From positions 1 through 49,729 of the IMG/VR virus record IMGVR_UViG_3300022818_000040: 49,729 bases of DNA. One strand, given 5' to 3'. The notes below the pieces were generated by a model. That model saw nothing but the letters and a program-made list of their open reading frames with translations. It had not been told where the DNA came from and did no database searches. Made by a program: the position numbers and the translations under genes. This DNA comes from a virus. Each line of letters begins with the position of its first letter. Positions within the stretch are counted from its first letter, which is position 1. Shown piece after piece: positions 1 to 49,729 of this stretch.

Positions 1-594
1 TATCCATATATACATCCTGCCAACGTCTATGGTACTCATTCCCCAATCCCTTCGCTGTCGTCTCTAATACTACCAGTGAGTTCTTACTGTCCGGTACTGG
101 GAGACCGGTATTTGATATGATGAAATGTCAGAGGCGGTTAGACGAAGCGAACAAGATAGAATTCAGGCAAGGTGATTTAGTACCGATATATACACAGGAT
201 AGCAGATATTTAAAGGCATTAAGTTCAGAACGGAATTCTTACTATGATTTAGTACCGTATTTAAAGGGTGTAGAGTTTCAGGAAAGCGGGAAAGGGCTAT
301 ACAAGATTTGGGATTATAAGGTAGTGGAGCAGGGAGATAGGAATGTATTTGTAGGCGGTTGGGACATAGCCGAAGGATTAGAGCAGGAGGACTGGACAGA
401 CGGCTCATATTTAGACAGAAGAACAAATAAGGTAATTTTAAGTTTTCACGGACATTTAGACCCGGATTTAATAGCAGATGAACAGCACAAGATAGACAAG
501 TATTTAGGGGGTGAAGTAGAGGTCTGCACAGAGCGGAACAATCACGGAATTACGGTAGTAAATTCAGCAAAGAAATACAATTTAAGGCAATATC
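1..594. repeat. Left terminal inverted repeat (assembly fold-back)
   Basis: Exact reverse complement of 49136-49729 where compared. It is composite: 1-99 is the reverse complement of 48635-48733 (inside the large terminase gene), and from 96 on the sequence runs forward through the same gene. The two parts share the 4-nt microhomology ACTG at 96-99. An inverted join inside an essential gene with short microhomology is what amplification or library chimeras produce. True terminal repeats are less likely because both arms break the terminase frame. Confidence 0.85.
96..210. repeat. Direct overlap with 49027-49141 (map closure)
   Basis: These 115 bases recur in the same orientation at 49027-49141. 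Joining the two copies keeps the terminase reading frame open and gives a 48,931-bp unit (96-49026). This supports a circular map or a circularly permuted, terminally redundant molecule. Confidence 0.85.
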
Positions 595-5663: not shown

Positions 5664-6878
5664 ATGGGCAACATAGTAACAGGAACTCGTACAAGTAAAC
5701 TTTCTACCCCTACCAATCAAGCACAGGATATGGATAGAGTAATGCACTATGTACAGGATTATCAAACTCCAATACAGCAGTTTTATGTATTCAATAAAGA
5801 TGCTTCTAAACCAGTAACAAACAAAAGAAGCAAATTTGAATGGCACGAAAAAACTGCAATAGCAAGAACATTCCTTATTGATGCTTTGGTTGGTGCAGGT
5901 GGCACTACCGGAACATTTACATTGGCAACAGCAGATTCAGGTCTATTAAGAATGGGCGATACATTGTTTGTTGAATCAACAGGACAAATATTTATCGTAA
6001 CAGGTTCTTCTGACCCGACAGTTTCGGCAACAGTAAGACTTGTGGCTTCGACAGGTACAATATTAGCAATAGCCGCAAGTGCAGTAATTCGCATAATCAA
6101 TTCTGCAAAGAAAGAAGATTACGCAAGGCAAGGTGCATTAACCAAAAACGCAGACCCGAAATACGGGTACTGTCAGATTGGACTTGATGCAGTTGCAATG
6201 AGTGGAAGAGAAGATGCCGGAGAAGCAATGACAGACGGTGAATCATTTACCGACTTAATGCTTGAAAAAAGCAATGAAATAGCGAAATACGAAGAAAGAA
6301 AATACCTTTACAACGGTGTACCGTGGGATGATACAACAAACAATATTACATATTCCGGTGGTGCAAGAGGAATGATTACAACTAACGTAGGATATTATGA
6401 CGGTGATGTTGATGAATCAGAACTCGAAGATCAATTGGAACTTATAATGGCAAAGAACGATGGCGGAGAAGTTATCGGATATTGTGGTGCTAAATATGCA
6501 AAAGGACTTAACAAGTTCTTGAAAGAAGCATACCAGTATAATACAAACGATATAATCTCTGTCTATGGTGGAATTACAAAGAAGGGTACATCTGACCCGA
6601 CAGTATTAAAGTATTTATCCCTTTGGGGTGCAGTCAAGTTTGTTCTTGACCCAATGCTCGAAGGAGATGTTTATGGTAATGCTTGTTTGTTCCTCAATAA
6701 GAAACATCACAGATTACGTTATATGAAGAACGATAGTAGAGGCGGAACAAGAAAATACAGAGTTGAACCGAACGTACAAGACCCCGGCACAGGTGTTATT
6801 CAAGACCAGATAATGTGGGACACCGGACTTGAAATAAACGAGGAAGTAATGCACGGTTGGCATTTAAAGAGAGCGTAA
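5664..6878 (+). CDS. Major capsid protein (SU10 / DUF5309-like)
   Basis: 404 residues, the HK97-fold shell subunit. The N-terminal part has the TPIQQFYVFNKD and KFEWHEKTAIA segments, then a Gly/Thr/Val-rich insertion (~residues 72-145, LRMGDTLFVESTGQIFIV and an IIRII-type strand) of the kind seen in SU10-type capsid proteins. A long-helix region follows (ESFTDLMLEKSNEIAKYEER) and a C-terminal part with LRYMKNDSRGGTRKYR. It is preceded by the scaffold candidate and followed by a strong hairpin. Length fits the family. Confidence 0.85.
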   Translation: MGNIVTGTRTSKLSTPTNQAQDMDRVMHYVQDYQTPIQQFYVFNKDASKPVTNKRSKFEWHEKTAIARTFLIDALVGAGGTTGTFTLATADSGLLRMGDTLFVESTGQIFIVTGSSDPTVSATVRLVASTGTILAIAASAVIRIINSAKKEDYARQGALTKNADPKYGYCQIGLDAVAMSGREDAGEAMTDGESFTDLMLEKSNEIAKYEERKYLYNGVPWDDTTNNITYSGGARGMITTNVGYYDGDVDESELEDQLELIMAKNDGGEVIGYCGAKYAKGLNKFLKEAYQYNTNDIISVYGGITKKGTSDPTVLKYLSLWGAVKFVLDPMLEGDVYGNACLFLNKKHHRLRYMKNDSRGGTRKYRVEPNVQDPGTGVIQDQIMWDTGLEINEEVMHGWHLKRA

Positions 6879-28542: not shown

Positions 28543-29346
28543 ATGCTTGAACTTAATAAAATAATATGCGGAGAAAGTTCCGAAATACTAAGACATTTCC
28601 CTTATGACTGTATAGATTTAACGGTTACAAGTCCACCTTACGATAATTTAAGAAACTACAACGGATATGAATTTGACTTTGAAGCAATAGCAAATGAATT
28701 ATTCAAAGTTACAAAGCCCGGCGGTGTAGTTGTTTGGGTTGTTGGTGATGCTACAATTAACGGAAGTGAAACAGGCACAAGTTTTCAACAAGCACTTTAT
28801 TTTAAAGAAATAGGATTTAATCTGCACGATACAATGATATATGCGAAAAACGGTTTTTCAAATCCTTCAAGCAATCGGTATCATCAAGTATTTGAATATA
28901 TGTTTGTGTTTAGTAAAAATATTCCGAAAACATTTAATCCCATAAAGGATAAAAAAAACTTATGGGAAACTTGGGGAGTTAATACAAGCAGACAAAAAAA
29001 TGGTGAATTAGAAGAAAAGAAAAAAAGAAAAAGTTATGTTGGTGAATTGGGTATGAGATATAATATTTGGAATTTTAATGTTGGCGGTTCTGGAATGTCA
29101 ACAAAAGATGATTTGGCGTTGAACCATCCTGCAACTTTTCCCGAAAAACTTGCACAAGACCATATTTACAGTTGGAGTAATGAGGGTGATTTAGTTCTTG
29201 ACCCATTCTGCGGAAGTGGTACAACATTAAAAATGGCTCACTTACAAAATAGAAAATTCATAGGAATAGATATTTCGAAAGAATATTGTGAATTAGCAGA
29301 AAAAAGAATTAATCCTTATTTAATGCAAGAAAAACTTATTTATTAA
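28543..29346 (+). CDS. DNA methyltransferase (N6-adenine/N4-cytosine type) 1
   Basis: 267 residues. TSPPYDNLRNY (29-39) is the catalytic motif IV with SPPY, and LDPFCGSGTTLK near residue 220 is the AdoMet-binding motif I, so the order is the beta class (IV before I). This class methylates exocyclic amines of adenine or cytosine. The C-terminus LAEKRINPYLMQEKL is nearly identical to that of the enzyme at 35177. It has no restriction partner beside it, which suggests self-protection against host restriction or epigenetic control. Confidence 0.9.
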   Translation: MLELNKIICGESSEILRHFPYDCIDLTVTSPPYDNLRNYNGYEFDFEAIANELFKVTKPGGVVVWVVGDATINGSETGTSFQQALYFKEIGFNLHDTMIYAKNGFSNPSSNRYHQVFEYMFVFSKNIPKTFNPIKDKKNLWETWGVNTSRQKNGELEEKKKRKSYVGELGMRYNIWNFNVGGSGMSTKDDLALNHPATFPEKLAQDHIYSWSNEGDLVLDPFCGSGTTLKMAHLQNRKFIGIDISKEYCELAEKRINPYLMQEKLIY

Positions 29347-34997: not shown

Positions 34998-35180
34998 ATG
35001 AGCGAAGAAAAATTATATACCGAAGATGAAAAAGGGATCAGAACTTTCGACTTGAGAGGGAAGCGGGGTTTATTCCATAGAAATAGCAGTGCCAGACCGA
35101 AAGACATTATCATAATTGATGACAAACATAAATACGAAATTCAGAAAGGTGGTTCATCCAGGAGGATAAAAAAGATATGA
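34998..35180 (+). CDS. Small basic protein
   Basis: 60 residues with an acidic start and Arg/Lys-rich body (RGKRGLFHRNSSARPKD). It overlaps the methyltransferase gene by 4 nt (ATGA). No family recognised. Confidence 0.5.
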   Translation: MSEEKLYTEDEKGIRTFDLRGKRGLFHRNSSARPKDIIIIDDKHKYEIQKGGSSRRIKKI

Positions 35181-36508
35181 AAACGGAATTAGAGTGTAAT
35201 ATTTGTAAAGCAAGAATCCCGAATAGTAAGAATTGGAGACGAGACGTAAAAGACCATTTCGGACTTAATCATTATCGAATCAAAAAGGGTATTGCCGCTT
35301 ACAAAGTAAAAGAAGATTTATTTAAAATAATAAAAGTTAAACAATCTGAACAATTAATGACAGAAGTAAATAAAATAATATGCGGTGATGCTTTAACGGT
35401 ATTGAAAACCTTTCCCGATAATGTAATTGATTGTTTTGTGTCAAGCCCGCCGTATTATGGATTAAGAGATTATGGAGTAGCCGGGCAATTAGGACTTGAA
35501 AAGACTTTCCACGAATATTTGAATAAGTTAATTGAGATATTCGCAGAAGTAAAGCGTGTATTAAAACCGACAGGTACAATATGGGTAAATATGGGAGATA
35601 GTTATTCGGGAAGTTCAAACGGAGCCGGTGATACAACTTCAACGAATAGATGTAAACCTGAAAGTTATAAGCAAATGTATCAAGGACAAAAACCCGGAAA
35701 ACAAATAACAGATAAATCCCTTCTCAACATTCCTTCACGTTTTGCAATTAAGATGACAGATGAACTGAATTTAATACAGCGAAATGAGATTATCTGGCAC
35801 AAACCGAATTGTATGCCGAGCAGTGCAAGCGATAGGTTTACGGTAGATTTTGAAAAGGTTTATTTCTTTACAAAAAGTAAGAAATATTATTTTGAACAGA
35901 TATTTGAAAAATATACAGCACCATTAGACCGATGGGGAGGCACCATGATAAGAGGAGACTTTAATACCAAGACAAAAGATTTTGCTGTTCAAGAACGTGC
36001 AGGTAGAAATATGAGACCAAACGAGCAGGGCAGAAACAAACGCTGTGTATGGGATATAACAACAAAGCCATATAAGGAAGCACATTTTGCAACTTTCCCC
36101 GAAGATTTAGTAAGACCAATGATACAGGCGGGCTGTCCTGAGTTTATTTGTAACAAATGCGGAAAGGTAAGAGAAAAGATATATGAAGAAAAAACTGGTA
36201 TGAAATATACGGAAGAAGGTAATCCCGAAGGAATGCACAGAAGTAAAATGAAATGGAACGACAGTCATCCAACAAAGAATCCAAGATTTTGGAGTAACAC
36301 AAATGTAATTGCATTAACCGACTGCAACTGTAACGCAGGATTTACAGGCGGAATAGTTCTTGACCCATTTTTTGGAAGTGGTACAACCGGAGTAGTAGCC
36401 TTAAAGCAGAATAAGAATTTTATAGGAGTGGAATTAAATCCTGAGTATATAAAGTTAGCAGAGAAGCGAATTAATCCTTATTTAATGCAAACTAAATTAG
36501 CAATATGA
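35177..36508 (+). CDS. DNA methyltransferase 2 with zinc-finger additions
   Basis: 443 residues. Residues 1-60 carry a C2H2-like finger (C7xxC10, His27, His32), ahead of the usual enzyme start (an internal ATG at 35357). Motif IV is SSPPYYGLRDYG (89-100); motif I is LDPFFGSGTTG near 395. Between them, residues ~315-390 contain CPEFICNKCGK and TDCNCN, a zinc insertion missing from the paralogue at 47162. The central segment is highly similar in DNA to that paralogue, while the C-terminal LAEKRINPYLMQ matches the enzyme at 28543. It probably modifies adenine or cytosine amines. Coupled to its neighbours by 4-nt overlaps. Confidence 0.9.
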   Translation: MKTELECNICKARIPNSKNWRRDVKDHFGLNHYRIKKGIAAYKVKEDLFKIIKVKQSEQLMTEVNKIICGDALTVLKTFPDNVIDCFVSSPPYYGLRDYGVAGQLGLEKTFHEYLNKLIEIFAEVKRVLKPTGTIWVNMGDSYSGSSNGAGDTTSTNRCKPESYKQMYQGQKPGKQITDKSLLNIPSRFAIKMTDELNLIQRNEIIWHKPNCMPSSASDRFTVDFEKVYFFTKSKKYYFEQIFEKYTAPLDRWGGTMIRGDFNTKTKDFAVQERAGRNMRPNEQGRNKRCVWDITTKPYKEAHFATFPEDLVRPMIQAGCPEFICNKCGKVREKIYEEKTGMKYTEEGNPEGMHRSKMKWNDSHPTKNPRFWSNTNVIALTDCNCNAGFTGGIVLDPFFGSGTTGVVALKQNKNFIGVELNPEYIKLAEKRINPYLMQTKLAI

Positions 36509-38242: not shown

Positions 38243-38914
38243 ATGAAAATTACATTAGAATTTTTAAAAGAAAAAGATGCTTGTTCAGCAGGCGTTAAAT
38301 GGTTCAAAGAAAATCAGTTGGAGGGTATGGAGCAAGTTCCGATTGTTAACAAGTTAATTGAAAATGATAAATTGGACTGGGCTAACTGGTTTATAGTTAG
38401 AATAATGACTTACAAGCAATATGTTTCTTATGCGGTTTTTGCAGCGGAGCAAGTTATTGATATTTACGAAAAGAAATATCCAGAAGACAAAAGACCGAGA
38501 AACGCAATAGAGGCAGCGAAAAAATGTATAGAAGATGATTCACAAGAAAATAGGTTTGCTGCTGATGCTGCTGCTGCTTATGCTGATGCTGCTGCTGATG
38601 ATGCTGCTGCTGCTGCTTATGCTTATGCTGCTGATGCTGCTGCTGCTGCTGATGCTGCTGCTGCTTATGCTTATGCTGCTGCTGCTGATGCTGCTGATTA
38701 TGCTGATGCTGCTGCTGCTTATGCTTATGCTGCTGCTGCTGATGCTGCTGCTTATGCTGATGCTGCTGCTGCTTATGATGCTGCTGCTGCTGCTGATGCT
38801 GCTGATTATGCTGATGCTGCTGCTGCTTATGATGCTGCTGCAAGAAAAGAAATGAGATTAAGAATTTTAAATTATGGGTTGGAATTATTAAAAGAAAAGG
38901 CCATCAATGATTAA
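38243..38914 (+). CDS. Imm5-like protein with Ala/Asp/Tyr repeat tract
   Basis: 223 residues. Residues ~1-100 (FLKEKDACSAGVKWFKENQL, LDWANWFIVRIMTYKQY) resemble the start of putative Imm5-like immunity proteins: an ACxxG..WF motif followed by a D..W block. Residues 106-200 consist only of Ala, Asp and Tyr, then a basic end. Related proteins often carry Ala-rich repeats, but this tract is unusually pure. A clear ribosome-binding site (AAGGAGG) lies upstream. Function in the phage is unknown; inhibition of a host toxin or defence factor is a possibility only. Confidence 0.65.
   Translation: MKITLEFLKEKDACSAGVKWFKENQLEGMEQVPIVNKLIENDKLDWANWFIVRIMTYKQYVSYAVFAAEQVIDIYEKKYPEDKRPRNAIEAAKKCIEDDSQENRFAADAAAAYADAAADDAAAAAYAYAADAAAAADAAAAYAYAAAADAADYADAAAAYAYAAAADAAAYADAAAAYDAAAAADAADYADAAAAYDAAARKEMRLRILNYGLELLKEKAIND
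38558..38842 (+). repeat. 95-codon tract built from GCT, GAT and TAT
   Basis: Every codon except the last (GCA) is GCT, GAT or TAT, so the third base is always T and the tract behaves like an interrupted trinucleotide repeat. This also opens long chance frames on both strands. Such tracts expand and contract by slippage, so copy number may vary between isolates. Confidence 0.95.
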
Positions 38915-41018: not shown

Positions 41019-41248
41019 AAACAATAAATATTGCAAATAAAAGACTCCTTCCATTTATAAAGGGTGCAAAATTACATTTGAATAATATTGATGAGATAAT
41101 GAAACTGCCAGAGGGAAGAATCAGAGATGAAACTATTGCAAAAGAAATGAATCGTTTTAATCTTGACCTTGATATGTTTTTACATTTTGGACTAAATGTT
41201 CCTCTTGACAAATTGCAGTCTGTTTTAAATGAAAATTTCAAATTATGA
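41015..41248 (+). CDS. Small hypothetical protein
   Basis: 77 residues, helical, with a possible helix-turn-helix (KLPEGRIRDETIAKEMNRFN). Overlaps both neighbours by 4 nt (ATGA). Function unknown. Confidence 0.5.
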   Translation: MKTINIANKRLLPFIKGAKLHLNNIDEIMKLPEGRIRDETIAKEMNRFNLDLDMFLHFGLNVPLDKLQSVLNENFKL

Positions 41249-41538
41249 AACCCCCCACGTTCAGCGATGAAGTAAGAGTAGCAATGTGGACTTTGCAGGG
41301 CTGTAAATGTTTTCTTTGTGATGAAACGAAAAACTTAACTGCTCATCACATCATTGAAAACGGAAAGACCAATAGGAAAATATATCTCGATAAAGTTCAG
41401 GATATAAGAAACGGTCGTTATGTCTGCTCCGTGCATCACAATAATACAAGTTGGGATAGGAAACTTAAAAAGGATTTGCATAAGATTTTCAAAGCGGAAT
41501 TACAAACTAAAGGGAAGTGGAAAGGTAAATTACCATAA
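41245..41538 (+). CDS. HNH endonuclease
   Basis: 97 residues. Cys22/Cys25 (KCFLCDE) and Cys61 (with His64/His65 in CSVHHNN) form the zinc frame, and TAHHIIENG (His34, His35) is the catalytic His block of the HNH/McrA type. Small stand-alone HNH proteins in phages can act in packaging or as homing nucleases. Here it is far from the terminase and coupled to the operon by a 4-nt overlap. Confidence 0.85.
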   Translation: MKPPTFSDEVRVAMWTLQGCKCFLCDETKNLTAHHIIENGKTNRKIYLDKVQDIRNGRYVCSVHHNNTSWDRKLKKDLHKIFKAELQTKGKWKGKLP

Positions 41539-41560
41539 ATGCGTCTCGAATAATTTCTTA

Positions 41561-41588
41561 AGGGGGTGAAATTTAAACAGAAACCCCT
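41561..41588 (+). terminator. Weak hairpin after the HNH gene
   Basis: AGGGG (41561-41565) pairs with CCCCT (41584-41588). The 10-mer AAATTTAAAC occurs twice in this gap. There is no T-run, so termination would be partial at best. Confidence 0.35.
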
Positions 41589-41653
41589 CAAATTTAAACG
41601 AACTCCATTGGGAATGGGAAAATCATCGAGTTTAAAATTAAAGTGTCTTAGGA

Positions 41654-42139
41654 TTGATTAAAACAATAAAATTCAATACACAATATTCAGTAGATGCACA
41701 AGGAAATATTATCCATAAAAATAAAACCCTCAAAACTTTCCAGAAATCGAATCATCATAAGAATATATATGTATTTATTGATAGAAAATCCTTTCAAGTC
41801 CGTTATTTAGTTTTAAATGCATTTATAGGACACAGAAATAAGAACTGGACAGCTTGTAACCATAATGGAAACCTCTCCGACTGCCGATTATCTAATCTCA
41901 AATGGAAATTAATTGTATCTCTTACCGAATCTTTAAGCAATAATGCCTTCAAATGCTATAATTTACTTCAAGACAAATTGAAAGAAAGGGGAATGAGTTG
42001 GATTGTATTTAATCGGATAGCTTTGAATGTATATGAAAAAAGCGGAAACCTTCCGATTCCCGCTTGTCAAATTGATTGCAAGTTTGTTGAGATGCTGAAT
42101 CAGAAGTTTAAAACCTCTGAAAATATTCCCCCGTTGTAA
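41654..42139 (+). CDS. HNH_3-type homing-endonuclease-like protein
   Basis: 161 residues from TTG. The family signature is visible: YSVDAQGNIIHKNKT at the start, LVLNAFIGHRN, then CNHNGNLSDCRLSNLKW with the catalytic His-Asn (CNHNGN...D.R..NL.W). It lacks an obvious C-terminal DNA-binding repeat but has a helical end (~105-150). It meets the - strand gene tail-to-tail with a 32-nt overlap. May be a mobile nuclease. Confidence 0.75.
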   Translation: MIKTIKFNTQYSVDAQGNIIHKNKTLKTFQKSNHHKNIYVFIDRKSFQVRYLVLNAFIGHRNKNWTACNHNGNLSDCRLSNLKWKLIVSLTESLSNNAFKCYNLLQDKLKERGMSWIVFNRIALNVYEKSGNLPIPACQIDCKFVEMLNQKFKTSENIPPL

Positions 42140-42428
42140 CCTTTGAATCCTTAAAATATTCTTTTAAAACGTAACCTTTTTCCTTAAATATTTCCGTATC
42201 GCCTTTTAAAATTCTAATCTTAATTGCTTCAACCACTTCAATAATTTGTTTCGTTAATCCGTCATACATATATCCTTCAAATATTTTCCAATTCTGATAA
42301 CCTAAAATAGTTGCTGTAAACCTTCTGTAAGAAACAGAGGATTGACTATATCCTTCTTTTTTTTCATCAAAAGATTCGGTGATTGAACACTTTGTTACCC
42401 AATCTTTATGAACTGCTAATTTTTTCAT
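42108..42428 (-). CDS. Hypothetical protein of the - strand block
   Basis: 106 residues, alpha/beta, ending 32 nt into the convergent + strand gene. The middle (RRFTATILGYQNWKIFEGYM) is aromatic-rich. Its start overlaps the excisionase-like gene by 4 nt. No family recognised. Confidence 0.55.
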   Translation of the reverse strand: MKKLAVHKDWVTKCSITESFDEKKEGYSQSSVSYRRFTATILGYQNWKIFEGYMYDGLTKQIIEVVEAIKIRILKGDTEIFKEKGYVLKEYFKDSKVTTGEYFQRF

Positions 42429-42607
42429 TTCATACCCCCTTTCTTTCTCGGTTTAGGCGGTTTAATTACATCAAGCGAAAGAATCATCCAATCCCTTCCG
42501 AATTTTTTCGCTTTAATTCGTTTTTGATTGCATAAGTCCCGGACACGCTGAACCGAGATTCCTTTTAACCGCGCCATTTCTTGAACTGTTAATTGAATTT
42601 GTTCCAT
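42425..42607 (-). CDS. Excisionase/MerR-type helix-turn-helix protein
   Basis: 60 residues. LTVQEMARLKGISVQRVRDL, then RIKAKKFGRDWMI, is the standard HTH_17 pattern (LT..E.A...G.S...VR.L...G.I.A.K.G..W.I). Basic C-terminal tail. In temperate phages such proteins direct excision. No integrase is visible here, so a simple regulator role is as likely. Confidence 0.75.
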   Translation of the reverse strand: MEQIQLTVQEMARLKGISVQRVRDLCNQKRIKAKKFGRDWMILSLDVIKPPKPRKKGGMK

Positions 42608-42608
42608 T

Positions 42609-43544
42609 TTACGCTACCTTTCTTTGATTTTTAATATCATTAGTTAATAAAGAAATTTCATTAATTAAGTTATCTTTTACAATTTTAAAGTAATTTTCTA
42701 ATTTATTTTCATTGAAAATCATACATTTTTCATAATGGCTGTAATAAGCATTTTTATTTCTTAAAATAATTCTTATTTCATCCGGTGGAAAATTCTGATT
42801 TTTTGCTTTAGAATTCAAGAAACCGTCTTTTCTGAAATATTCAGGATATTTATTTCTTGTTTGTGATACGAAACCATCAAAATTTAACAATCCATTACCT
42901 TGTTTAATTATATAATCTAAATCATCTAATTCAATTTCGTTAATATCGGTATCTAACAAACCGAGAAACTCTGCTAAATGGAAACTTTCTAATTTTAACC
43001 AGTAACTTTTATCAGGATATTTCATTTTATATTTATCAAATTCTTTGTAATCTAATGCAGATTGATGTTGGCGAATCCAGTTTTCTCTAATGCTTTTTTC
43101 ATTCTGTCCGTACAAACTCTCCTTTTCAAGTTTTACTTTCTTTTCATAAAATTCAATCATATCAGAAATACCGGATTTCTTTGCTTCCTCTAAATTATCC
43201 AATGTATCTTGAAAATGTTCTTTTATGTTATTTATATATATATCCGGTGTTGAATCGAGATAATCAGGACTGGGCATTTGAGAGACTGGGGATTGTTTTG
43301 GAATTTTGTATTCCGGTATTTTTGTATTTTTAGGATATGAATGTGAAAATTTCTTCACTATTTCATCTAAACAATCCAAAGGAATTTTATATATAATTTT
43401 ACCATTATCATATGAGAAAATAATACATTCATTCCTAAATCCATAACCCAGTTTACGTAACTGTAATTTAAAACCGTCTTGAGTATCTCCCGTAGCTTTT
43501 TGGATTTTTTTAAGTTCCTCGTAAATCAATTTATTTTTTTCCAT
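42609..43544 (-). CDS. Hypothetical protein of the - strand block
   Basis: 311 residues. The N-terminal ~80 residues are alpha/beta (YGFRNECIIFSYDNGKIIYK), followed by a Pro-rich linker and a long charged helical region to the end. Preceded by GGAGT just upstream. The two-part layout suggests a polyvalent-type protein, but I recognise no domain. Confidence 0.6.
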   Translation of the reverse strand: MEKNKLIYEELKKIQKATGDTQDGFKLQLRKLGYGFRNECIIFSYDNGKIIYKIPLDCLDEIVKKFSHSYPKNTKIPEYKIPKQSPVSQMPSPDYLDSTPDIYINNIKEHFQDTLDNLEEAKKSGISDMIEFYEKKVKLEKESLYGQNEKSIRENWIRQHQSALDYKEFDKYKMKYPDKSYWLKLESFHLAEFLGLLDTDINEIELDDLDYIIKQGNGLLNFDGFVSQTRNKYPEYFRKDGFLNSKAKNQNFPPDEIRIILRNKNAYYSHYEKCMIFNENKLENYFKIVKDNLINEISLLTNDIKNQRKVA

Positions 43545-43575
43545 TTTTTACTCCTGTTTAGTTTAGTTGCATTAA

Positions 43576-43591
43576 GGCAGTTTTACCTGCC
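43576..43591. other. Hairpin in the 77-nt gap
   Basis: GGCAG (43576-43580) pairs with CTGCC (43587-43591) around a 6-nt loop, between two - strand genes. It could influence transcript levels of the block. Confidence 0.4.
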
Positions 43592-43621
43592 CTCATCTGC
43601 ATTTATACCGACTGTGAACGG

Positions 43622-43960
43622 TTAAGAATTAATATAATCTTGAATTGCATTATATAATCCTGCATAATGTCCATTATCCAGTTCAAATTTTTCTGCTGTT
43701 TCTGCTGTTTCAATCGTATAATAATTTAAATCGTGTTCAAATGATTCTGACTTCGCATAATATTGAACATTGTTATTACAATCCTCAATATCACCATCAT
43801 CATTAAGATTATAATTATCTGAACTATTCAAAGCAATTTGAGACAATGAGGATAATAATATATCCTTATTTTCATTTGCTTCAATAACTGTCCATTTTCG
43901 ATTCAATCCGGTATGATTTCCGTGATTAGATTTCAAGAGAAAATAAGTTTCTTCTTTCAT
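43622..43960 (-). CDS. Acidic hypothetical protein
   Basis: 112 residues, strongly acidic and Asn-rich (SSDNYNLNDDGDIEDCNNN). Strong AAGGAG site upstream on the - strand. Acidity and place in an accessory block are compatible with a DNA-mimic or inhibitor, without direct evidence. Confidence 0.6.
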   Translation of the reverse strand: MKEETYFLLKSNHGNHTGLNRKWTVIEANENKDILLSSLSQIALNSSDNYNLNDDGDIEDCNNNVQYYAKSESFEHDLNYYTIETAETAEKFELDNGHYAGLYNAIQDYINS

Positions 43961-43993
43961 TTTAAACTCCTTATAATTTAATTTTAGTAATAT

Positions 43994-44027
43994 ACGGGAC
44001 TTTCGCCCCGTTTCGACTTTTCAAGTC
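43994..44027. other. Two adjacent hairpins between - strand genes
   Basis: ACGGG/CCCGT (43994-43998/44007-44011) and GACTT/AAGTC (44015-44019/44023-44027) lie back to back just past the stop of the LPD29-like gene. They could form a terminator or attenuator on the - strand transcript, but no T-run of length is present. Confidence 0.4.
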
Positions 44028-44036
44028 TCGTCAGTA

Positions 44037-44909
44037 TTACTGAATTTGTTTATATGGTTTGTCCCACTTTCCTATTGATAAACTTGAATAGAAATTTACA
44101 TTAAAATAATCAGTTTGCGAATCTGAATCATCATAATTAAATGAATTAACTAAATCATTAACCCGATTAAATAATTTTTTACCCTCTTCAGTTAATTTTT
44201 TGCTATCATTTATATAAAATTGATTAATATCATCGTGTCCGATATATTCATTTAATACTTGAATATCTGATTCCATTAAGTTTACATATAAATGTTGTCC
44301 GCCTGAATAACTTTCAATTCTTACTGAAAATTTAGAGTTTGGAAAGTCTTTTTTAAATTGATTTCTTAACAGTTTCGCAATGGTTTTTAAATCAAGTTTT
44401 GAATGATAGTTTAAACCTTCGCATCCTCTACCGGAATAGTTTTGTTTCGCTTTATCTTCAAAACCCGTTTTTATATCATTTCCGGCTAATAAATTATCAA
44501 TCCTTTCATTTTTTGCTTCGTTTCGTTCTCTCTGCTTTTCTTTTTCAATGATTGAATCCGCTTGTCTTACAACATTCATTTGTTTTGTTTTTTCAATTGC
44601 TTCCTCAATTTCCTGCATTGTAGCAACTTGACCATCTTTGTAATATGTACCTATTCCGAATTTATCATTCCAATTTCTGATATGATAAGCATCGTGAATT
44701 TCAAATTTAAAAGCATCTAAATTAACAGTATAATATCTTAATCTGTTATCCATACCATCAAATTCTTTTTTATAAATTGCTTTTCTTTCATTTTCTTTAT
44801 TGTACCCCCAGAGAAATACAATTTGCCCGATTTCTAAAATTGCATCTTTGACAGGTTCGAGTTTACCGGAACGACCCAATAGAAAAATTCCTGTTGTTGT
44901 AATGCTCAT
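44037..44909 (-). CDS. LPD29-like polyvalent protein
   Basis: 290 residues. Residues ~175-260 (KTIAKLLRNQFKKDFPNSKF, then SVRIESYSGGQHLYVN) match the pattern of large polyvalent-protein-associated domain 29: a helix, FP..KFSVR, a beta hairpin and a DYFNVNFY strand later. The N-terminal ~90 residues are alpha/beta and the middle is a Lys/Glu coiled coil. LPD domains occur in proteins that phages and conjugative elements deploy against host defence. The domain call is from memory of the pattern. Confidence 0.6.
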   Translation of the reverse strand: MSITTTGIFLLGRSGKLEPVKDAILEIGQIVFLWGYNKENERKAIYKKEFDGMDNRLRYYTVNLDAFKFEIHDAYHIRNWNDKFGIGTYYKDGQVATMQEIEEAIEKTKQMNVVRQADSIIEKEKQRERNEAKNERIDNLLAGNDIKTGFEDKAKQNYSGRGCEGLNYHSKLDLKTIAKLLRNQFKKDFPNSKFSVRIESYSGGQHLYVNLMESDIQVLNEYIGHDDINQFYINDSKKLTEEGKKLFNRVNDLVNSFNYDDSDSQTDYFNVNFYSSLSIGKWDKPYKQIQ

Positions 44910-44942
44910 TGTTTGTTTTCCTTTATTTTTTAGTTTGTGGAA

Positions 44943-45137
44943 TTAATTAATTGGATTTATGAAATCTTTTGTTCTGAATTGAGGATATAAATATTGAAAT
45001 AATTGGCTATATCTTTTATGTTCAATATCGTTATCATCTAACACAACAAATTTATAATTACCGAATATCTTATTTTTCAGTATTATATATTCACTGGCTA
45101 ATTTTGAGAATTGACTTTGTTGTCTTGTGTTTTTCAT
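44943..45137 (-). CDS. Small basic protein, first gene of the - strand block
   Basis: 64 residues, mostly helical, with a hydrophobic strand (NYKFVVLDDNDIEH region). Opens the leftward operon from the divergent region. No family recognised. Confidence 0.5.
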   Translation of the reverse strand: MKNTRQQSQFSKLASEYIILKNKIFGNYKFVVLDDNDIEHKRYSQLFQYLYPQFRTKDFINPIN

Positions 45138-47161: not shown

Positions 47162-48103
47162 TTGATAGTTCCAAACCAAATATATTGCGGAGATAGTTTA
47201 GAAGTCTTAAAGGGATTTGAGAGTGGTAGTATAGATTGTTGTATAACTTCTCCCCCTTATTATGCTTTGAGAGATTATGGGTGTAAGGGACAGTTAGGAT
47301 TGGAAAAGACATTCCACGAATATTTAAATAAGTTAATTGAAATTTTCGCAGAAGTAAAGCGTGTATTAAAACCGACAGGCACAATATGGGTAAATATGGG
47401 AGACAGTTATAATTCACATTCAACAGGACAGGGAAATGTTGGGGGATTAGAAGGCAAAAGAAAAGACAAAGAAAATAATAAGGCAAATATATCTAAACAG
47501 TTTAAACAAGTTCCCGACAAATGCTTATTAAACATTCCTTCACGATTTGCAATTAAGATGACAGATGAACTCAACTTAATACAGAGAAATGAGATAATAT
47601 GGTATAAGCGGAACTGTATGCCGAGTAGTGCAAGTGATAGGTTTACAGTGGACTTTGAGAAAATTTACTTCTTTACAAAGAATAAGAAATATTATTTTGA
47701 ACAGATATTAGAAGAAATTTCAGAGGTTAGTAAGCGGGACCGTAGATTAGATAATGGCAGGTTTGAATATATAGGTAAAAATAAGAATAAAGAGTTCAAT
47801 GTTCAGAATGGATTTTGTGGAGTAAACACACAAGGCAGAAACAAACGCTGTGTATGGGATATAACTACAAAGCCATATAAGGAAGCACACTTCGCAACTT
47901 TCCCAGAAGATTTAGTAAAACCTATGATACAAGCGGGCTGTCCAGAGAACGGAATAGTTCTTGATATTTTCGCAGGTAGTGGAACAACTTTAAAAGTAGC
48001 AAAAGAAATGAACAGAAATTATATCGGAATAGAATTGAATAAAGATTATTTACCATTGATAGAGAAACGGATTAATGGAATACCTTTAAGATTAGCAGTT
48101 TGA
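47162..48103 (+). CDS. DNA methyltransferase 3
   Basis: 313 residues from TTG, which overlaps no upstream gene; the start is fixed by the early IYCGDSLEVL block. Motif IV is TSPPYYALRDYG (29-40) and motif I LDIFAGSGTTLK near 272. Residues ~42-190 are highly similar, also in DNA, to the enzyme at 35177, but it lacks that enzyme's zinc insertion and N-terminal finger. Its stop overlaps the terL start (TTGA), placing it in the packaging operon. Confidence 0.9.
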   Translation: MIVPNQIYCGDSLEVLKGFESGSIDCCITSPPYYALRDYGCKGQLGLEKTFHEYLNKLIEIFAEVKRVLKPTGTIWVNMGDSYNSHSTGQGNVGGLEGKRKDKENNKANISKQFKQVPDKCLLNIPSRFAIKMTDELNLIQRNEIIWYKRNCMPSSASDRFTVDFEKIYFFTKNKKYYFEQILEEISEVSKRDRRLDNGRFEYIGKNKNKEFNVQNGFCGVNTQGRNKRCVWDITTKPYKEAHFATFPEDLVKPMIQAGCPENGIVLDIFAGSGTTLKVAKEMNRNYIGIELNKDYLPLIEKRINGIPLRLAV

Positions 48104-49141
48104 CCAAAGAGCAGTTAAGAAATATTATCAATGATTACAGGCGGTACGCATTAAACTTTTTAGTATTGCGGAATAAGCGTAGTGAGTTAGTACCATTCAA
48201 GTTTAACAAGACACAGGAGATATTAGATTGGATAAGGGGATATGCGAGGGATAATGGATTACTGGAGAGGTATTTAATTTTAAAGGCAAGGCAGAAGGGA
48301 ATTAGTACATATTGGGAAGGTGTCTTAGATTGGATGACAAGTACGAGGTACAACACGAAGGCGGTAGTAATCGGACACGTAGAGGAAGCCAGCAGGAATT
48401 TATTTGAGATGGTACAGAGATTTTTCAAGCACAAGCCGGAGCAATTAAGACCAGTAACGCAGAACACGAATGAACGGAAGATAAAGTATTTAAAATTAGA
48501 TTCAGAGATAAAGGTAAAGACAGCGGGAGTAAGCGGCGAAGGAACGGGCAGGAGTGACACGATTAATTTATTACATTGTACAGAGGTAGCATTTTGGAAT
48601 GATGCAGAGCAGAGTCTTTTGGGATTATTACAGGCAGTACCGGACAGTAAGAACTCACTGGTAGTATTAGAGACGACAGCGAAGGGATTGGGGAATGAGT
48701 ACCATAGACGTTGGCAGGATGTATATATGGATAGGAACAAGATAGAGATAATCCCGAACACAGCGTGGCGGACACCTAATTCTAAGTACATAGCAATTTT
48801 CATAAGTTGGTTGATTGACGATGAATACTCAATGGCATTTGACAGTGAAATAATGAGAAGTGGATTCGAGAGAAGTTTAACGGATGCGGAAAAGGAGTTG
48901 ATAAAACGAGGTGCAACACTTGAACATTTGAATTGGCGTAGATACACGATTAAGGACAAGTGCAGTGGGGATGAAGGGCAATTTCAGCAGGAATATCCCT
49001 CCACACCGGAGGAAGCATTTTTAGTAACTGGGAGACCGGTATTTGATATGATGAAATGTCAGAGGCGGTTAGACGAAGCGAACAAGATAGAATTCAGGCA
49101 AGGTGATTTAGTACCGATATATACACAGGATAGCAGATATT
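48100..49141 (+). CDS. terL: Terminase large subunit, N-terminal part (ATPase domain)
   Basis: Starts at TTG overlapping the methyltransferase stop. RQKGIST (64-70) within LILKARQKGISTYWEG is the Walker A-type loop of terminases, and INLLHCTEVAFW (155-166) with Glu162 is the Walker B/catalytic block. It pumps DNA into the prohead. The true sequence ends its overlap at 49141 and continues at 211; codons past 49141 are chimeric. Rejoined protein: 593 residues, normal for TerL. Confidence 0.92.
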
Positions 49142-49729
49142 GCCTTAAATTGTATTTCTTTGCTGAATTTACTACCGTAATTCCGTGATTGTTCCGCTCT
49201 GTGCAGACCTCTACTTCACCCCCTAAATACTTGTCTATCTTGTGCTGTTCATCTGCTATTAAATCCGGGTCTAAATGTCCGTGAAAACTTAAAATTACCT
49301 TATTTGTTCTTCTGTCTAAATATGAGCCGTCTGTCCAGTCCTCCTGCTCTAATCCTTCGGCTATGTCCCAACCGCCTACAAATACATTCCTATCTCCCTG
49401 CTCCACTACCTTATAATCCCAAATCTTGTATAGCCCTTTCCCGCTTTCCTGAAACTCTACACCCTTTAAATACGGTACTAAATCATAGTAAGAATTCCGT
49501 TCTGAACTTAATGCCTTTAAATATCTGCTATCCTGTGTATATATCGGTACTAAATCACCTTGCCTGAATTCTATCTTGTTCGCTTCGTCTAACCGCCTCT
49601 GACATTTCATCATATCAAATACCGGTCTCCCAGTACCGGACAGTAAGAACTCACTGGTAGTATTAGAGACGACAGCGAAGGGATTGGGGAATGAGTACCA
49701 TAGACGTTGGCAGGATGTATATATGGATA
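49136..49729. repeat. Right terminal inverted repeat (assembly fold-back)
   Basis: Reverse complement of 1-594. At the left junction the forward gene switches to its own opposite strand at a 5-nt microhomology (GATAT, 49136-49140); at 49631-49634 (CAGT) it switches again to a forward copy of 48635-48733. Two inverted switches with 4-5 nt homology indicate a chimera. Confidence 0.85.
49142..49634 (-). pseudogene. Inverted artefactual copy of part of terL
   Basis: Opposite-strand copy of 96-593. It contains an open frame of terminase sequence but no start or end of its own. It should not be counted as a gene. Confidence 0.8.

What the first reader, a model, noticed from the sequence alone, without database searches (positions are those of the whole stretch)
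42108..45137. Opposite-strand accessory block with excisionase-like and LPD29-like proteins
Six genes run leftwards in an otherwise rightward genome, separated by hairpin-bearing gaps. The set (excisionase-like regulator, LPD29-like polyvalent protein, acidic protein, two unknowns of 311 and 106 residues, one small basic protein) is typical of early host-takeover or anti-defence cargo, yet no integrase is present. This is the best candidate for an undescribed system.
Basis: partly seen in the sequence, partly recalled or inferred. Interest (0 to 1): 0.6.

Follow-up and report, generated by a model that had tools for sequence, protein, structure and literature searches.

The report
Phage operon cut by self-cleaving RNAs
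A block of six backward-facing genes in an unclassified phage carries two different self-cleaving RNAs (a hammerhead and a twister ribozyme) in its only two long gaps, so its single transcript probably cuts itself into three messenger RNAs; this kind of arrangement is known from other phages, but its purpose has never been settled.

Summary
The six leftward genes are real (42108-45137) and end at a strong terminator (42065-42040). One is a type I hammerhead (44041-43986; 52.3 bits, E 5e-15 against a covariance model built only from other phages). The other is a type-P3 twister (43631-43559; Rfam RF03154, 47.1 bits, cut-off 39.9). Both overlap the stop codon of the gene before them, and predicted cleavage leaves 32- and 29-nt leaders on the next gene. 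An unrelated 62-kb phage has an opposite-strand operon, also with an LPD29 gene, holding three twister-P3s and two hammerheads. Among 81 distinct phage hammerheads between same-direction genes, 66 start within -22..+7 nt of the upstream stop and 64 cleave 10-60 nt before the next start. Best reading: the operon RNA is cut into three mRNAs (64 aa + LPD29; 112 aa; 311 aa + HTH + 106 aa). Clustered phage ribozymes were reported in 2011, so this is a new mixed-class member of a known kind. The proteins are mostly orphans; "early", "anti-defence" and "excisionase" are untested; no integrase was found.

The parts
44943..45137 (-). 64-aa small basic protein, first gene of the operon, no relative found
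44037..44909 (-). 290-aa protein: about 170 uncharacterised N-terminal residues plus C-terminal LPD29 domain (phrog_10415)
   Evidence: PF18847 39 bits; phrog_10415 E 8.5e-20; alignments A1/A4; AlphaFold pLDDT mostly above 90 over residues 161-290, no solved fold match
43986..44041 (-). type I hammerhead ribozyme; stems I/II/III of 7/5/7 bp; predicted cleavage between 43993 and 43992 (GUA|U); stop codon 44039-44037 lies inside stem I
   Evidence: strict descriptor, only hit in window, 0.025 expected per strand; model R1 52.3 bits, E 4.6e-15; RAGATH-1-hammerhead 22.7 and Hammerhead_1 15.7 bits, below Rfam cut-offs
43622..43960 (-). 112-aa acidic protein, no relative found; 32-nt leader after predicted cleavage
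43559..43631 (-). type-P3 twister ribozyme; predicted cleavage between 43574 and 43573 (U|A); starts inside the end of the 112-aa gene
   Evidence: Rfam RF03154, 47.1 bits, cut-off 39.9, E 4.3e-7 over the window, full model; cleavage position
42609..43544 (-). 311-aa orphan protein; 29-nt leader after predicted cleavage
   Evidence: no family, no relative, single-sequence model pLDDT 46
42425..42607 (-). 60-aa HTH_17 DNA-binding protein, 1 nt after the 311-aa gene
   Evidence: PF12728 34.8 bits; gap
42108..42428 (-). 106-aa orphan protein, overlaps the HTH gene by 4 nt
42040..42065 (-). intrinsic-terminator-like hairpin (11 bp stem, T tail) closing the operon; lies inside the 3' end of the convergent HNH gene 41654-42139

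Best explanation
The block is one leftward transcription unit from upstream of 45137 to the terminator at 42040. As RNA polymerase passes each long gap, the nascent RNA folds into a ribozyme, a hammerhead after the LPD29 gene and a type-P3 twister after the 112-aa gene, and cuts itself. This yields three mRNAs: (64 aa + LPD29), (112 aa), (311 aa + HTH + 106 aa). Each downstream mRNA starts with 5'-OH and a 29-32 nt leader holding a purine-rich ribosome site. Each upstream mRNA ends in a folded ribozyme with a 2',3'-cyclic phosphate, which should resist 3' exonucleases. Cistrons kept together (1 nt apart or overlapping) are probably translated together; those separated by a ribozyme can have their own stability and dose. 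Shown here: gene order, terminator, both ribozyme motifs, their position, and recurrence of the arrangement in other phages. Inferred: co-transcription, actual cleavage, and its effect on mRNA stability or dose.
For: Twister-P3 above the Rfam cut-off. Hammerhead with full consensus core, single hit in the window, E 4.6e-15 against a model from 40 other phage hammerheads whose stems covary strongly (98.1% of cells paired, covariation score 0.747 versus 0.155 shuffled). Both lie on the coding strand, in the only two long gaps, overlapping the upstream stop. Unrelated phage G002 has an opposite-strand operon with LPD29 (58.9 bits) and RadC, three twister-P3 and two hammerheads, all on the operon strand. 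In 80 IMG/VR loci fetched by hammerhead core, 66 of 81 distinct hammerheads between same-direction genes begin within -22..+7 nt of the upstream stop and 64 of 81 cleave 10-60 nt before the next start, median 27.5 nt; random positions give about 11% for comparable criteria. Gaps with a hammerhead have a median of 71 nt, gaps without one 4 nt. Literature: tandem phage hammerheads flanking ardA cleave in vitro and in E. coli (PMC3088659).
Against: No cleavage, transcript or expression data for this phage. The hammerhead is below Rfam's own gathering scores, and its cleavage triplet is GUA rather than the common GUC. No clear promoter was found upstream of 45137. Twister pseudoknots and hammerhead loop-loop contacts could not be tested. 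No close relative of the phage exists in the collections searched, so the window's ribozymes cannot be checked for conservation in a near relative.
Confidence: 0.76

Rival explanations
1. Translation-coupled switch: because the upstream stop codon lies in or next to the ribozyme, a terminating ribosome masks its 5' strand, so cutting happens only when the upstream gene is little translated. The ribozyme would then sense translation rather than simply process mRNA.
For: Stop overlap in both window ribozymes; in 18 of 81 distinct phage hammerheads the offset of -9 puts the stop on the conserved UGA of the CUGANGA core.
Against: Tight packing of phage genes (median gap 4 nt without a ribozyme) already places any inserted element next to the stop; a TGA stop in the core is expected in one frame of three.
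Confidence: 0.15
2. The ribozymes are active but serve RNA circularisation or religation rather than mRNA separation.
For: Hammerheads and twisters make circular RNAs in other settings; Perreault et al. considered splicing or circles for phage arrays.
Against: Perreault et al. could not detect such products. The window pair is of two classes and no RNA ligase was recognised among the proteins searched here (not every window ORF was searched).
Confidence: 0.04
3. Ordinary hairpins or decayed ribozymes: the motifs are chance or relics and do not cleave.
For: Hammerhead below Rfam gathering score; no experiment.
Against: Full consensus core, E 4.6e-15, twister above gathering score, both on the operon strand in adjacent long gaps; 0.025 hammerheads expected per strand of the window.
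Confidence: 0.05
4. One reading: the block is best understood as an early anti-defence cassette, the gap structures being incidental. The anti-defence role itself is compatible with the best explanation.
For: LPD29 is a polyvalent-protein domain tied to early invasion (PMC5512222); G002's matching operon has RadC; phage hammerhead arrays flank ardA elsewhere (PMC3088659).
Against: Four proteins have no relatives; no known anti-defence family among them. 94 proteins flanking phage hammerheads match almost no known family (10 Pfam families in all).
Confidence: 0.3

Closest known systems
Clustered hammerhead ribozymes in prophages (Perreault et al. 2011, PMC3088659), including the Agrobacterium tumefaciens triple array around ardA
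   Same: Several self-cleaving ribozymes on one strand flanking single genes or short blocks of phage accessory genes; proposed to process long phage transcripts.
   Different: Here two ribozyme classes (hammerhead and twister-P3) alternate in one operon; the phage has no recognised integrase; the genes are LPD29 and orphans, not ardA.
Twister ribozyme, type P3 (RF03154)
   Same: Full-length match above the curated score; U-A cleavage step present.
   Different: Context: operon separator at a stop codon. Found in only two other contigs by the core pattern, one of them with three copies.
RAGATH-1 hammerhead (RF03152) / Hammerhead_1 (RF00163)
   Same: Same core, type I topology and stem II sequence pattern.
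   Different: 22.7 and 15.7 bits, below the gathering scores of 56.3 and 34.
LPD29 polyvalent-protein domain (PF18847)
   Same: Conserved NYDDSDxQTDYF and IGxWDKPY motifs.
   Different: The only recognised domain in this 290-aa protein; relatives in gut elements carry an N-terminal J-domain-like segment instead.

Membership tests
Hammerhead ribozyme, type I | Core CUGANGA, GAA and A15.1-U16.1 / H17 intact | tested here: met
   CUGACGA ... GAA A ... U A|
Hammerhead ribozyme, type I | Three stems, ends in stem I | tested here: met
   7/5/7 bp; 52.3 bits with covariation-supported model R1
Hammerhead ribozyme, type I | Rfam gathering score (a curation threshold, not a structural feature) | tested here: not met
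   22.7 bits of 56.3 (RF03152), 15.7 of 34 (RF00163); filed on structure and core, not on the Rfam score
Hammerhead ribozyme, type I | Self-cleavage | not testable with these tools
   needs in vitro transcription
Twister ribozyme, type P3 | Rfam gathering score, full length | tested here: met
   47.1 bits of 39.9, positions 1-73/73
Twister ribozyme, type P3 | U-A cleavage dinucleotide after P1 | tested here: met
   CUGCCUU|AAUGCA; U-A step per PMC5408937
Twister ribozyme, type P3 | Two pseudoknots | not tested
   not modelled
LPD29 polyvalent protein | LPD29 domain | tested here: met
   39 bits of 27
LPD29 polyvalent protein | Two or more disparate known domains in one polypeptide | tested here: not met
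   no second family in the 290 aa; a solo LPD29 protein rather than a proven polyvalent one
Excisionase / lysogeny module | Integrase or recombinase in the genome | tested here: not met
   PF00589 and PF00239 absent, controls ring
Clustered phage ribozyme operon | Two or more self-cleaving ribozymes on one strand between phage genes | tested here: met

The most novel reading that the evidence does not exclude
Phages use self-cleaving ribozymes as interchangeable cistron separators placed by one rule: at the upstream stop codon and about 27 nt before the next start. Class (hammerhead I or II, twister-P3) does not matter, and with the stop codon built into the catalytic fold, cleavage may be coupled to translation.
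Probability: 0.4. Interest if true: 0.75.

Novelty: new member of a known kind. Interest (0 to 1): 0.52.

Why it matters
Bacterial and phage hammerhead and twister ribozymes cluster together for reasons that remain unknown (stated in PMC10085705). An operon in which two unrelated classes fill equivalent positions, plus a positional rule seen in dozens of other phages, points to transcript cutting itself as the selected function and gives exact sites to test.

Tried and rejected
Close relatives of the LPD29, 311-aa and portal proteins in IMG/VR: none. Portal and 404-aa structural protein in INPHARED: none; only the terminase has distant relatives. Twister core pattern in genome contigs and some viral loci (L014-L022): chance, no Rfam support. 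LPD29 as a general ribozyme neighbour: rejected. Of 80 LPD29 loci only one (L106) has clean hammerheads, the type I model R1 found none in them, twister-P3 is absent from 50 LPD29 records, and no hammerhead locus of 80 encodes a detectable relative of the window's proteins. Twister-P3 in 50 hammerhead records: none. Bacteroidota-type promoter motif: not enriched, so no host assigned. LPD29 fold: confident domain but no PDB match. 311-aa protein: poor model. An RNA structure in the 41539-41653 gap: no better than shuffles.

Full report
Observation. The six leftward ORFs are present exactly as listed. HTH_17 and LPD29 are confirmed by Pfam above cut-off; the other four proteins match nothing above threshold in Pfam or PHROGs. 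A strong intrinsic-terminator-like hairpin at 42065-42040 (11 bp, T tail) closes the block on the minus strand, inside the end of the convergent HNH gene. Gaps within the block are 33, 76, 77, 1 and -4 nt.

The hairpins are ribozymes. Rfam calls a full-length type-P3 twister at 43631-43559 (47.1 bits, gathering 39.9, E 4.3e-7 for the whole window). In the other long gap a strict descriptor finds one hammerhead in the whole window: type I, 44041-43986, stems 7/5/7 bp, core CUGACGA / GAA / A-U / H17 = A. Markov-shuffled sequence gives 0.025 such hits per strand. Rfam's own hammerhead models see it only weakly (22.7 and 15.7 bits, below cut-off), so I built an independent model.

Independent model. 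A core pattern (CTGANGAGNC ... GNCGAAAC ... Forty of these were aligned; 98.1% of paired cells are standard pairs with a covariation score of 0.747 (shuffled 0.155, slid versions at most 0.116). The pattern fixes only a few of these pairs and none of stem I, but the descriptor had required stems, so the percentage leans towards the structure. Model R1 from these 40 finds the window's hammerhead at 52.3 bits, E 4.6e-15, and nothing else in the window.

Position. In the window the LPD29 stop codon lies in stem I of the hammerhead, and the 112-aa gene ends inside the start of the twister. Predicted cleavage leaves leaders of 32 nt (112-aa gene) and 29 nt (311-aa gene). In other phages, 81 distinct type I hammerheads sit between two same-direction genes (of 92 with neighbours on both sides). 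Of these, 66 start within -22..+7 nt of the upstream stop and 64 cleave 10-60 nt before the next start, median 27.5 nt. Random positions satisfy comparable criteria in about 11% of cases. Gaps with a hammerhead have a median of 71 nt, gaps without one 4 nt. Gene calls for these loci came from a simple ORF chooser of mine, and related loci were thinned only at 85% identity.

Recurrence of the mixed arrangement. The twister core pattern found IMG/VR contig 3300017716_002569 (62 kb, G002). Its minus-strand operon holds three twister-P3 (62.2, 58.7, 58.5 bits), two hammerheads (63.9 and 38.6 bits), a RadC gene and an LPD29 gene. Apart from weak matches of the DNA methyltransferases, none of the window's proteins has a match in the first 60 kb of G002, so the two operons are not inherited with a common phage genome. 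A third LPD29 locus (L106) has two type II hammerheads in two successive gaps upstream of the LPD29 gene. One phage (G073) has nine hammerheads in 4.3 kb. LPD29 is not a general marker: ribozymes were seen at 1 of 80 LPD29 loci found without regard to ribozymes.

Proteins. The LPD29 domain (C-terminal about 130 residues) is well modelled but matches no solved fold. Other LPD29 proteins are solo domains in large phages or follow a J-domain-like segment in human-gut elements. Polyvalent-protein domains were proposed to act at the earliest stage of invasion (PMC5512222). The 311-aa protein is an orphan with a poor model. Proteins flanking phage hammerheads are likewise mostly unknown: 94 proteins matched only ten Pfam families.

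Mechanism. The most likely working is co-transcriptional self-cleavage of one leftward RNA into three mRNAs: 64 aa + LPD29; 112 aa; 311 aa + HTH + 106 aa. Tightly coupled genes stay together. The chemistry (5'-OH downstream, 2',3'-cyclic phosphate upstream) is established knowledge for both ribozyme classes; the effect on stability or dose is inferred.

Known versus new. Perreault et al. 2011 (PMC3088659) described clustered hammerheads around genes in prophages, proposed transcript processing, and showed cleavage of an array around ardA. Later work states that hammerheads and twisters are enriched near each other and near Mu-like phage genes, with the biological reason unknown (PMC10085705). 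The window is a new, mixed-class member of this kind. The stop-codon and leader-length rule was not found in the papers I could read; several key papers (Roth 2014, Weinberg 2015, known to me from their citation) were not available here, so no priority is claimed.

Genome. The contig ends are an assembly feature: a 594-bp perfect inverted end repeat, and a 115-bp direct repeat (96-210 = 49027-49141) across which the terminase gene reads through as one ORF. The genome is therefore probably a circle of about 48.9 kb, and the absence of an integrase is meaningful.

Noticed in passing
window 1-594, 49027-49729: Contig ends carry a 594-bp perfect inverted repeat and a 115-bp direct repeat; the terminase gene reads through across the direct repeat, so the record is probably a closed circle of about 48.9 kb with snap-back assembly ends.
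   Followed up: partly
window 28543-29346, 35177-36508, 47162-48103: Three separate genes match the same DNA methyltransferase family (phrog_67) in one 49-kb phage.
   Followed up: no
window 41245-41538 and 41654-42139: Two HNH-endonuclease-like genes sit just left of the block; the block's terminator lies inside the second.
   Followed up: no
L009 / G002:C1:9827-14665: Leftward operon with three twister-P3 and two hammerhead ribozymes, RadC and LPD29 genes; the same phage has a 4516-aa protein (44748-58298).
   Followed up: partly
L149 / G073:C1:4448-8718: Nine type I hammerheads in 4.3 kb of one phage, all on one strand.
   Followed up: partly
L106:6298-6349 and 6594-6645: Two near-identical type II hammerheads in successive gaps upstream of an LPD29 gene; not called at Rfam gathering thresholds.
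   Followed up: partly
L003:3230-4300, L002:18249-19163, L027:5785-7923: LPD29 preceded by J-domain-like sequence (HPDKGG or HPDNGG motif in L003 and L027) in human-gut mobile elements, suggesting a chaperone link for LPD29.
   Followed up: no
window 38603-38772 (+): Sub-threshold isrG RNA match (33.6 bits, cut-off 100, E 2.5e-5) inside a coding gene; unexplained.
   Followed up: no
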